DNA of 64,000 nt from Streptomyces sp. SAI-127 (lineage in GTDB: Bacteria > Actinomycetota > Actinomycetes > Streptomycetales > Streptomycetaceae): the NCBI RefSeq assembly GCF_029894425.1, contig NZ_JARXYJ010000001.1, positions 6,840,501 through 6,904,500 on the forward strand. Direction: 5' to 3'. This document shows, piece after piece, positions 26,756 to 36,352 of this stretch. Within the stretch, counting starts at the first letter, position 1; each line of letters opens with the position of its first letter. A model generated the notes under the pieces. That model was not told where the DNA came from, made no database searches, and was given only the letters and a program-made list of their open reading frames with translations. A program made the position numbers and the translations under genes.

Positions 26756-26828
26756 GGGGCTATAGCTCAGTTGGTAGAGCGCCTGCATGGCATGCAGGAG
26801 GTCAGGAGTTCAATTCTCCTTAGCTCCA
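26756..26828 (+). tRNA. tRNA-Ala (GGC), copy 1
   Basis: 73 nt. Acceptor stem GGGGCTA / TAGCTCC, D arm GCTC-GAGC, anticodon stem CCTGC / GCAGG with loop ATGGCAT giving anticodon GGC (reads GCC/GCU), T arm GGAG-TTCAATT-CTCC, discriminator A. CCA is not encoded. Confidence 0.97.
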
Positions 26829-29904: not shown

Positions 29905-29977
29905 GGGGCTATAGCTCAGTTGGTAGAGCACCTGCATGGCATGCAGGGGGTCAGGAGTTCAAATCTCCTTAGCTCCA
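29905..29977 (+). tRNA. tRNA-Ala (GGC), copy 2
   Basis: 73 nt, 70 identical to copy 1 (differences at tRNA positions near 26, 44 and in the T loop). Same acceptor stem and GGC anticodon; CCA not encoded. Confidence 0.97.
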
Positions 29978-33303: not shown

Positions 33304-33309
33304 TACTCT
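33304..33309 (+). promoter_or_regulatory. -10-like hexamer for leaderless leu leader peptide
   Basis: TACTCT followed by six bases and the leader-peptide ATG at 33316. The same arrangement as upstream of 19333 and 19978. Confidence 0.55.
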
Positions 33310-33315
33310 GACGCC

Positions 33316-33354
33316 ATGCGTGCCGTACGCCTTCTGCTTAGCGAGCCGCGCTGA
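33316..33354 (+). CDS. leuS leader peptide (12 aa, Leu-Leu-Leu)
   Basis: ORF encoding [12 protein letters not shown]. Three consecutive leucine codons CTT-CTG-CTT include two CTT, a rare codon in this genome. Stalling here under leucyl-tRNA shortage would control the downstream terminator. Confidence 0.75.
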
Positions 33355-33424
33355 TCAGTCCCGACCACCGGTGAAGACGTGGTCGGAATCGGCGCGGCGT
33401 CCCCTCCTGTGCGAGGGGATTTTT
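33345..33424 (+). promoter_or_regulatory. Transcription attenuator upstream of leuS
   Basis: Three elements follow the leader peptide. GCCGCGC (33345-33351, end of the peptide gene) is complementary to GCGCGGC (33392-33398). A hairpin CCGACCAC / GTGGTCGG lies between (33361-33386). A terminator CCCCTC-N6-GAGGGG follows (33401-33418), with A and five T. Ribosome position on the peptide could decide which pairings form. The layout is ribosome-mediated attenuation; I see no T-box. Confidence 0.75.
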
Positions 33425-33478: not shown

Positions 33479-36352
33479 ATGAGCGAGACGAACCCCGCTG
33501 CCGCCGAGGTGGCCGCGCCGCACCGCTACACGGCCGCCGTCGCGGCCGAGATCGAGGCACGCTGGCAGGACTTCTGGGATGCCGACGGCACCTACGCGGC
33601 GCCCAACCCCAAGGGTGACCTGGCCGGCGACCCCGGGCTGGTCGCCAAGCCCAAGAAGTTCATCATGGACATGTTCCCGTACCCCTCCGGTGCGGGCCTG
33701 CACGTCGGCCACCCGCTGGGCTACATCGCCACCGACGTCTTCGCCCGCTTCCAGCGGATGACCGGCCACAACGTCCTGCACACCCTGGGCTTCGACGCCT
33801 TCGGCCTGCCCGCCGAGCAGCACGCCGTGCAGACCGGCGAGCACCCCCGGGTCACCACCGAGGCCGCCATCAACAACATGAAGTCCCAGCTGCGCCGGCT
33901 GGGCCTGGGCCACGACAAGCGCCGGTCGTTCGCCACGATCGACCCGGACTACTACAAGTGGACCCAGTGGATCTTCGTCCAGATCTTCAACTCCTGGTAC
34001 GACGACGAGGCGAAGAAGGCCCGCCCGATCTCCGAGCTGGTCGCGCGGTTCGAGTCCGGTGAGCGCCCGGTTCCCGGCGGCCGTTCCTGGGACGCCCTGT
34101 CCGCCGCCGAGCGTGCCGACGTCCTGGGCGAGTACCGCCTGGCGTACGCCTCCGACGCGCCGGTCAACTGGTGCCCCGGTCTGGGCACCGTGCTGGCCAA
34201 CGAGGAGGTCACCGCCGACGGCCGCAGCGAGCGCGGCAACTTCCCCGTCTTCAAGGCCAAGCTGCGCCAGTGGAACATGCGGATCACCGCATACGCCGAC
34301 CGCCTGCTGGACGACCTGAACGAGCTGGACTGGCCCGAGGCCATCAAGCTGCAGCAGCGCAACTGGATCGGCCGCTCCGAGGGCGCCCGCGTCGACTTCC
34401 CGATCGACGGCGAGGCGATCACAGTCTTCACCACGCGCCAGGACACCCTGTTCGGCGCTACCTACATGGTGCTGGCCCCCGAGCACCCGCTGGTCGAGAA
34501 GTTCACCCCGGGCGCCTGGCCCGAGGGCACGCACGACGTGTGGACCGGCGGCCACGCCACGCCGGCCGAGGCCGTCGCCGCCTACCGCGCCCAGGCCGCC
34601 TCCAAGTCGGACGTCGAGCGCCAGGCCGAGGCCAAGGACAAGACCGGTGTCTTCACCGGCGCGTTCGCCACCAACCCGGTCAACGGCGAGCAGATCCCCG
34701 TCTTCATCGCCGACTACGTCCTGATGGGCTACGGCACCGGCGCGATCATGGCCGTACCGGCGCACGACACGCGTGACTTCGCCTTCGCGCGCGCCTTCGA
34801 GCTGCCGATCCGCTGCGTGGTCGAGCCGAGCGACGACCGGGGCACGGACGCCTCGACGTGGGACGACGCCTTCGTCTCGTACGACGCCAAGATCGTGAAC
34901 TCGCACGGCGAGGACGTGTCGCTGGACGGCCTGGGCGTGACCGACGCCAAGGCGCGCATCACCGAGTGGCTGCAGGGCAAGGGCATCGGAGAGGGCACCG
35001 TCAACTTCCGGCTGCGCGACTGGCTGTTCAGCCGCCAGCGCTACTGGGGCGAGCCCTTCCCGATCGTCTACGACGAGGACGGCATCGCCCACTCCCTGCC
35101 CGAGTCGATGCTGCCGCTGGAGCTGCCCGAGGTCGAGGACTACTCGCCCCGTACCTTCGACCCGGACGACGCGGACACCTCCCCGGAGACCCCGCTGTCC
35201 CGCAACCAGGACTGGGTCGACGTCACCCTGGACCTGGGTGACGGACGCGGTCCCCGCCCGTACCGCCGCGAGACCAACACCATGCCCAACTGGGCCGGCT
35301 CCTGCTGGTACGAGCTGCGCTACCTGGACCCGCACAACAGCGAGAAGCTGGTCGACCCGGAGATCGAGCAGTACTGGATGGGCCCCCGCGCGGGGCAGCC
35401 GCACGGTGGTGTCGACCTGTACGTCGGCGGTGCCGAGCACGCCGTGCTGCACCTGCTGTACGCGCGCTTCTGGTCCAAGGTCCTGTACGACCTGGGGCAC
35501 ATCTCGTCGCCCGAGCCGTTCCACAAGCTGTACAACCAGGGCATGATCCAGGCTTTCGTCTACCGCGACAGCCGGGGCTTCCCGGTGCCCGCCACCGAGA
35601 TCGAGGAGCGCGACGGCGCCTTCTTCTACAACGGCGAACAGGTCAAGCGCGAGCTGGGCAAGATGGGCAAGTCCCTGAAGAACGCCGTCACCCCCGAGGC
35701 GATCTGCGAGGAGTACGGCGCCGACACCCTGCGCCTGTACGAGATGGCGATGGGCCCGCTGGACGTCTCGCGTCCGTGGGACACGCGCGCGGTGGTCGGC
35801 CAGTACCGCCTGCTGCAGCGGCTGTGGCGCAACGTCGTCGACGAGGCCACCGGCGAGGTGACCGTCGTCGACGCCGAGCCCGACGAGACGACGCTGCGGG
35901 CCCTGCACAAGGCGATCGACGGGGTGCGCCAGGACCTGGAGGGCCTGCGCTTCAACACCGCCATCGCCAAGGTCACCGAGCTGAACAACCACCTGACCAA
36001 GGCGGGCGCCGCGGTTCCGCGTCCGGTCGCCGAGTCGCTGGTGCTGCTGATCGCGCCGCTGGCCCCGCACATCGCCGAGGAGCTGTGGCGCAAGCTGGGC
36101 CACACCGACTCGGTCGTCCACCAGGACTTCCCGGTCGCCGACCCGCGGTACGTCGTGGACGAGACCGTGACCTGCGTGGTCCAGGTCAAGGGCAAGGTCA
36201 AGGCCCGCCTGGAGGTCTCGCCCGCCATCTCCGACGACGAGCTGGAGAAGGTCGCGCTGGCCGACGAGAAGGTCGTGGCCGCGCTGGACGGGGCGGGCAT
36301 CCGCAAGGTGATCGTGCGGGCGCCGAAGCTGGTGAACATCGTTCCGGCGTAG
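33479..36352 (+). CDS. leuS: Leucyl-tRNA synthetase
   Basis: Charges tRNA-Leu. 957 residues, ATG at 33479 after TGAGGA; the frame is open upstream across the attenuator but not coding there. HIGH motif as HVGH (75-78), a large CP1 editing domain ([41 protein letters not shown]), and KMSKS as KMGKS near 728, which is usual in actinobacteria. Expression is probably controlled by the leucine leader peptide. Confidence 0.98.

What the first reader, a model, noticed from the sequence alone, without database searches (positions are those of the whole stretch)
33304..33424. Leaderless leucine leader peptide and attenuator upstream of leuS
[12 protein letters not shown] with CTT-CTG-CTT, an antiterminator-capable 7-base complement between the peptide's own codons and 33392-33398, an intermediate hairpin and a terminator with five T. 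The peptide itself seems to be leaderless (TACTCT-N6-ATG). Leader-peptide control of an aminoacyl-tRNA synthetase by translation stalling is unusual; T-boxes are the rule in Gram-positives.
Basis: partly seen in the sequence, partly recalled or inferred. Interest (0 to 1): 0.7.

Follow-up and report, generated by a model that had tools for sequence, protein, structure and literature searches.

The report
Leucine-sensing leader of leucyl-tRNA synthetase gene
Just ahead of the gene for the enzyme that loads leucine onto its tRNA lies a tiny leucine-rich leader gene and an RNA switch that very probably turns the gene up when leucine runs short; it was already described in Streptomyces, but it turns out to be widespread in related bacteria and seems to be built differently from the textbook version.

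Summary
A 12-codon leader ORF ([12 protein letters not shown], 33316-33354) starts 6 nt behind a TACTCT box and precedes an intrinsic terminator (33399-33424) and leuS (33479-36352). It is not new: the identical peptide, leaderless and followed by a terminator, is in print for Streptomyces lividans TK24 (PMC8079986, leuL2), and a leuS attenuator was predicted in two Streptomyces in 2005 (PMC1262725). Best reading: leucine-responsive, ribosome-gated transcription attenuation. That P1 favours readthrough, and does so by blocking the terminator sterically, is inferred, not shown.

The parts
33304..33309 (+). -10 box TACTCT of the leader transcript
   Evidence: TAnnnT 6 nt (190) or 7 nt (12) before the start codon in 202 leaders (where a box within 3-9 nt was required); TA and final T at least 97% in 153 distinct rows of the family
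33316..33354 (+). Leaderless leader [15 protein letters not shown] and stop TGA
   Evidence: same peptide reported as leaderless in S. lividans TK24; transcript start not mapped in this strain
33331..33339 (+). Leucine codons CTT-CTG-CTT; the last is CTT in 199 and CTC in 3 of 202 leaders
33345..33354 (+). Helix P1, 5' arm GCCGCGCTGA (last codons and stop)
   Evidence: Pairing in 1019 of 1030 cells of 103 distinct leaders; covariation
33361..33386 (+). Inner hairpin inside P1 (33361-33368 with 33379-33386); variable, too short for it in some relatives
   Evidence: the stretch between the P1 arms is 8-102 nt long
33389..33398 (+). Helix P1, 3' arm TCGGCGCGGC
33399..33424 (+). Intrinsic terminator: stem 33399-33406 with 33413-33420, T run to 33424, directly behind P1
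33479..36352 (+). leuS, leucyl-tRNA synthetase (957 aa)
   Evidence: TIGR00396 906 bits, cut-off 548

Best explanation
It is a leucine-responsive, ribosome-mediated transcription attenuator of leuS. The transcript starts at the leader's AUG, so a ribosome loads at the very 5' end. With enough Leu-tRNA the ribosome runs to the stop codon and covers the 5' arm of helix P1, which is made of the last codons and the stop; P1 cannot form, the terminator folds and stops RNA polymerase. When Leu-tRNA is short the ribosome waits on the Leu codons just upstream, P1 forms, and because P1 ends at the foot of the terminator, the terminator cannot close inside the polymerase exit channel, so leuS is read through. 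Shown by sequence: leader, Leu codons, P1, terminator, abutment, wide conservation. Published for the same peptide in another strain: leaderless transcript. Inferred: the response to leucine, that P1 favours readthrough, and that it does so sterically. My split: leucine-responsive attenuator 0.9; P1 as the structure that favours readthrough 0.65; steric route 0.4.
For: Leader with Leu codons at a fixed place: at the same distance before P1 a Leu codon stands in 202 of 202 leaders. P1 pairs in 1019 of 1030 cells, 22-57% when slid by 1-3 nt, and covaries in distant genomes: 71 cells with change on both sides against 12.8 in shuffles (rows fitted to the model and not leuS alone). Early-stop leaders keep P1 although it is no longer coding. 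A terminator begins 0-3 nt behind P1 in 200 of 202 leaders (only this range was searched), while the stretch between the P1 arms varies from 8 to 102 nt. P1 with its loop is more stable than the terminator (median -34 and -13 kcal/mol). The last Leu codon is the rare CTT in 199 of 202.
Against: No experiment on leucine response or termination for leuS was found. In folding models P1 and terminator coexist (0.99 and 0.98 with a ribosome over the first 28 nt, mean of 200 leaders), so energies alone predict no switch. Before the terminator is complete, its 5' arm pairs upstream more with the ribosome at the stop (mean 0.38) than with it stalled (0.05) or absent (0.20), the reverse of what a classical switch needs. 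Clusters of hairpins have been proposed to be as effective as one strong hairpin in termination (PMC8355165, passages), which is the opposite role for P1. Under leucine plenty P1 could re-form after the ribosome leaves.
Confidence: 0.6

Rival explanations
1. Classical strand-sharing attenuation as in E. coli trp: an antiterminator uses the terminator's own 5' arm, and ribosome stalling lets it form.
For: This is how PMC1262725 labels the leuS leaders of two Streptomyces; its figure is not held, so I cannot see which helix was meant.
Against: P1 and terminator share no base in any of the 200 leaders scored (by construction of the search behind P1, and visible). The terminator 5' arm pairs upstream with mean probability 0.05 when stalled; in the trpE leader of the same genome, a positive control, it is 0.72 stalled, 0.43 free and 0.36 at the stop.
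Confidence: 0.12
2. P1 and terminator act together as a tandem terminator, or P1 is a pause hairpin that lets the ribosome catch up; P1 then does not favour readthrough, and the leucine response, if any, has another route or the opposite sign.
For: Both hairpins are predicted together. Hairpin clusters are proposed to terminate (PMC8355165, passages). A T-G step lies 9-12 nt behind P1 in 201 of 202 leaders, 10 nt in 178, with G ten positions upstream of it in 175 of the 201, resembling the recalled pause consensus.
Against: Full translation would then weaken termination and raise leuS when leucine is plentiful. A pause role does not exclude the preferred reading.
Confidence: 0.2
3. A T-box or other ligand- or tRNA-binding RNA controls leuS here.
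For: T-boxes control many such genes in Firmicutes and ileS in several actinobacteria (PMC1262725).
Against: Only two tRNAs reach an Rfam cut-off in the whole window; near leuS only two weak opposite-strand matches at E up to 5; no match in 9 relatives.
Confidence: 0.02
4. The leader acts by translation coupling or transcript stability and the hairpin behind it terminates little; the premature terminator is not the control point.
For: Cysteine-codon leaderless ORFs of mycobacteria are described as attenuators of downstream genes (passage in PMC9031893; original paper not held).
Against: A terminator with a T run lies directly behind P1 in 200 of 202 leaders and itself shows compensated changes.
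Confidence: 0.06

Closest known systems
leuL2-leuS attenuator of Streptomyces lividans TK24 (PMC8079986)
   Same: Identical peptide [12 protein letters not shown], leaderless, hairpin and uridine stretch behind it, ahead of leuS
   Different: Nothing found that differs; a helix over the stop codon is not mentioned in the passages I read
Predicted leuS attenuators of S. coelicolor and S. avermitilis (PMC1262725)
   Same: Leader ORF with Leu codons and terminator ahead of leuS
   Different: Called classical, with an antiterminator whose place I could not see; here the conserved helix shares no base with the terminator
trpE attenuator of the same genome (trpL1 type)
   Same: Leader peptide with a codon run (MHAHSTQNWWWTAHPAAH) and a terminator
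   Different: There the antiterminator uses the terminator's 5' arm (GGCGGCC with GGCCGCC)
leuA leader, LEU element (PMC1262725; leuL1 in PMC8079986)
   Same: Leaderless Leu leader in the same genome (MRFGLLLLSCRGEGL, L234), second-best match of the model, 20 bits
   Different: No typical terminator according to PMC8079986; a pseudoknot is proposed in PMC1262725
Polycysteine leaderless ORFs of mycobacteria (known to me through PMC9031893)
   Same: Leaderless short ORF with a run of codons for the amino acid that is sensed
   Different: Cysteine and other genes; the original paper was not available

Membership tests
Ribosome-mediated (leader-peptide) transcription attenuators | Short translated ORF with a run of codons for the amino acid linked to the gene behind it | tested here: met
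   Two or more Leu codons before P1 in 202 of 202 leaders (this was also required by the search); Leu at a fixed offset; leuS behind it. Translation itself was not tested
Ribosome-mediated (leader-peptide) transcription attenuators | Intrinsic terminator between leader and gene | tested here: met
   activity not tested
Ribosome-mediated (leader-peptide) transcription attenuators | An RNA helix whose formation depends on where the ribosome stands | tested here: met
   P1 5' arm includes the stop codon and lies 5 nt behind the last Leu codon; the footprint argument is recalled knowledge
Ribosome-mediated (leader-peptide) transcription attenuators | Readthrough rises when the amino acid or charged tRNA is short | not testable with these tools
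   Needs an experiment
Classical (trp-type) attenuators with strand sharing | Antiterminator and terminator compete for the same bases | tested here: not met
   No shared base; both coexist in folds; trpE of the same genome meets it
Leaderless leader ORFs | Transcript starts at the start codon | tested here: inconclusive
   -10 box 6-7 nt upstream in 202 of 202 leaders; start reported in S. lividans, not in this strain
T-box riboswitches | Rfam T-box or other known cis-regulatory model match | tested here: not met

The most novel reading that the evidence does not exclude
The leuS leader is the best-conserved example found here of a distinct attenuator design in Actinomycetota: a leaderless leader ORF whose own end makes a ribosome-gated helix that abuts the terminator without sharing a base, so that the choice is made by steric exclusion in the polymerase exit channel, and RNA that is not translated reads through instead of terminating. 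The design recurs with Ile codons ahead of citramalate synthase and a threonine-deaminase-like gene.
Probability: 0.4. Interest if true: 0.7.

Novelty: already known. Interest (0 to 1): 0.42.

Why it matters
The leader itself is in print for Streptomyces, so the window adds one more copy. What could matter is the design. A helix that ends where the terminator begins, kept by compensatory changes from Streptomyces to genomes of another class, predicts a switch that works by position rather than by competition for a strand. It makes a testable difference: without translation the trp type should terminate, this type should read through. It also turns a Streptomyces observation into a widespread way for actinobacteria to sense leucyl-tRNA, and points to an RNA family that Rfam release 15 does not hold.

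Tried and rejected
T-box or riboswitch: not supported. Strand-sharing antiterminator: sought by folding with ribosome masks over 200 leaders, not found. A small hairpin in the first codons (33318-33330) was not pursued, because those codons differ among relatives. A -35 box: none conserved. The paper on polycysteine ORFs is not held. The 2010 survey of attenuators in bacteria by Lopatovskaya and others was seen only in a reference list; it may already trace leuS attenuators beyond Streptomyces, so I do not claim that the spread is unreported. Searches of the paper library.

Rows dropped or special. The script missed L011 because it was turned the wrong way; one search shows its leader, so the family count is 173 of 173 and the total 203 of 226; the counts rest on the 202. 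L193 has a decayed leader and L173 no Leu codons, by eye. Two f40 leaders (L221, L222) gave no terminator by the strict rule, though one with a longer loop is visible. In one search three of 30 leaders gave no P1-terminator pair: L292, L294 and L302; L302 was a script miss. In alignment A2 the 43 rows are fitted to the model and include leuA, citramalate synthase and threonine-deaminase-like leaders and three short extra matches. In some searches the terminator was sought only 0-3 nt behind P1, and rewarded one there, so these counts say that a terminator is there, not how gaps would fall without that limit. A1 is 48 of the 56 leaders picked plus the window. The 38 ORFs were picked for GC-rich third positions, which lowers their share of CTT. 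In one search two genomes with weak matches (G372, G451) were left out because one search did not list their places.

Full report
What is there. The window lies in a Streptomyces chromosome: the closest named leuS product is 98% identical (best segment; Streptomyces sp. LUP47B). Upstream of leuS (33479-36352; TIGR00396, 906 bits), one search shows TACTCT (33304-33309), six bases, and the ORF ATG-CGT-GCC-GTA-CGC-CTT-CTG-CTT-AGC-GAG-CCG-CGC-TGA (33316-33354). Behind it come an inner hairpin (33361-33368 with 33379-33386) and an intrinsic terminator (33399-33420, then T).

What is already known. PMC8079986 (passages and section 14 part 1 of 2) lists leuL2 of S. lividans TK24 with exactly this peptide, transcribed leaderless, followed by a hairpin and uridines. 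PMC1262725 (section 3, parts 1 and 2 of 3) predicts classical attenuators ahead of leuS in S. coelicolor and S. avermitilis; its figures are not held. The finding itself is therefore not new.

Conservation. 80 of 80 named Streptomyces leuS loci carry the leader with the -10 box exactly 6 nt before the start: 78 read MRAVRLLLS(E/G)PR and 2 MRAVCLLLGEPR. Of 295 Streptomyces genomes 294 match the 200-nt stretch; the one that does not is 79% complete. Upstream regions of leuS were then taken from the family, order and class. With the 110 earlier Streptomyces loci and the window these make 226 regions; a script found the leader in 202 and adds one it had missed. By family: f1 173 of 173, f40 13 of 13, f19 7 of 7, f9 3 of 3, f28 3 of 5, f33 1 of 2, f30, f37 and f39 1 of 1 each, and none of 20 in f4, f13, f18 and f26. 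Families are numbers without names in these tools. In f18 one further genome (G619) has a leader ahead of leuS, so absence in a sample is not absence in a family; matches were also found in f26 genomes outside that sample.

Structure. The arm GCCGCGCTGA (last codons and stop) pairs with a 10-nt arm downstream: helix P1. In 103 distinct leaders 1019 of 1030 cells pair; sliding the partner by 1-3 nt leaves 22-57%. In alignment A1 (49 leaders) 95.9% of cells of P1 and terminator pair, but the shuffled mean is 95.2% because the sequences are so alike; 6 of 16 pairs show changes on both sides (shuffled mean 2.3) in 8 cells (2.8). In 43 matches of the covariance model R1 in more distant genomes (A2, fitted to the model and not leuS alone) covariation is strong: 12 of 16 pairs and 71 cells against 12.8 in shuffles; slid controls reach at most 11 cells. 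By eye, P1 reads GCCGCTTG/CGAGCGGC, GCCGCGTCG/CGACGCGGC, GCCGTGC/GCACGGC or GCCGCGAACGC/GCGTTCGCGGC in different genomes.

Natural variants. Several leaders stop early at a TAG at the start of P1 (MRAVTLLLM*, MRAILLLS*, MRSGLLLA*, MRSALLLT*, MRWNLLLR*). P1 is kept there although it no longer codes, so its place is set by RNA pairing and not by the peptide. By the usual ribosome footprint (recalled), a ribosome at either stop still covers the 5' arm, while one waiting on the first Leu codon does not.

Abutment. P1 and terminator share no base. A terminator stem begins 0-3 nt behind P1 in 200 of 202 leaders (143 at 0, 23 at 1, 33 at 2, 1 at 3; among 101 distinct rows 52, 21, 27 and 1); only this range was searched. 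In 30 further leucine leaders, of which only some were checked to precede leuS, 27 have one at 0-1 nt (which rewarded such a terminator). The stretch between the P1 arms in contrast runs from 8 to 102 nt. Folding keeps both helices: with the first 28 nt masked, P1 0.99 and terminator 0.98 on average in 200 leaders; unmasked 0.97 and 0.96. Before the terminator is complete its 5' arm pairs upstream with mean probability 0.05 when stalled, 0.20 free and 0.38 with the ribosome at the stop, the reverse of a classical switch. In the trpE leader of the same genome the values are 0.72 stalled, 0.43 free and 0.36 at the stop, because GGCGGCC of the leader pairs with GGCCGCC of the terminator. This single control shows that the method sees strand sharing where it exists.

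Mechanism. The ribosome at the stop hides the P1 arm; a ribosome held on the Leu codons frees it, wholly at the first codon and in part at the last. For leuS to rise on leucine shortage, P1 must favour readthrough. The terminator has to close at the edge of the RNA-DNA hybrid, and P1 (median -34 kcal/mol with its loop; terminator -13) ends at its foot, so I infer that a formed P1 keeps it from closing in the exit channel. This step is not shown, and clusters of hairpins have been proposed to cause termination (PMC8355165, passages). A possible pause site, T-G 10 nt behind P1 in 178 of 202 leaders, with G ten positions upstream of T-G in 175 of the 201 that have it, may add to it.

Codon choice. 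The Leu codon nearest P1 is CTT in 199 and CTC in 3 of 202 leaders. CTT makes up 34 of 1638 Leu codons in 38 window ORFs, picked for GC-rich third positions, and 1 of 6013 in 80 leuS genes. A rare codon next to P1 fits a sensor of charged tRNA; that is inference.

Distribution. R1 matches at E <= 0.01 in 146 of 296 class genomes and 72 of 114 genera, weak matches and other leaders included. Of 50 genomes outside Streptomyces with a LeuS place and a listed match, 38 have the match within 1 kb upstream on the same strand. Of the other 12, G353 proved to lie ahead of leuS on another contig and G378 probably does (LeuS-like start by eye; the fragment gave no family match). Five belong to isoleucine leaders (G363, G382, G384, G414, G440) and five were not resolved. 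Of 149 genomes of the phylum 16 match at E <= 0.001, 8 of them outside the class. The two strong ones (G752, G685) lie ahead of leuS; two weak ones lie ahead of a 2-isopropylmalate synthase and an acetolactate synthase gene, one (G782) showed no clear leader, three were not looked at. No Rfam family covers it.

A sister design. Leaders such as MPSQVLIIVRRAG*, VPSQVIIIVRRAG* and VQSALIIT*, with a -10-like box 6 nt before the start, complementary stretches over the end of the ORF and a terminator directly behind, precede citramalate synthase (TIGR00977, 621-670 bits, cut-off 450, in 4 of 4 tested; four more by eye). VAQHLMIISWAREPA* precedes a threonine ammonia-lyase-like gene that stays below the family cut-offs. 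The helix of these was read by eye, not tested apart. One search for print on a citramalate synthase leader listed one unrelated paper.

Verdict. Confirmed, and already known as an element. The label classical fails its defining test here; the wide spread and the abutting design are the parts worth following.

Noticed in passing
L307, L309, L311, L312 (also L308, L313, L314, L315 by eye); families f17 and f31 among them: Leaders with Ile codons (MPSQVLIIVRRAG*, VPSQVIIIVRRAG*, VQSALIIT*) and the same layout ahead of citramalate synthase genes (TIGR00977).
   Followed up: partly
L310 (G363, family f18): Leader VAQHLMIISWAREPA* ahead of a threonine ammonia-lyase-like gene, hairpin and T run behind it.
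   Followed up: partly
L234 (own genome, C1:6951030-6951126): Second-best match of the leuS model is the leuA leader MRFGLLLLSCRGEGL (20 bits, E 0.0135), which hints that the leuS and leuA leaders may share an origin.
   Followed up: no
L324 (G674, outside the class): Weak model match near a leader ending CTTATTACC-TAG, ahead of an acetolactate synthase gene fragment.
   Followed up: no
window 33399-33411: T-G step 10 nt behind P1 inside the terminator loop, with G ten positions upstream, kept in most leaders; resembles a recalled polymerase pause consensus.
   Followed up: partly
L193 and L173: Leaders that have lost most or all Leu codons (VASQQQRLIGPR*, VRAAPHPCPRREAPR*) but keep CCGCGCTGA, by eye: possible decay of the switch.
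   Followed up: no
window 26756-26828 and 29905-29977: Two tRNA genes, the only Rfam matches at cut-off in the window.
   Followed up: no
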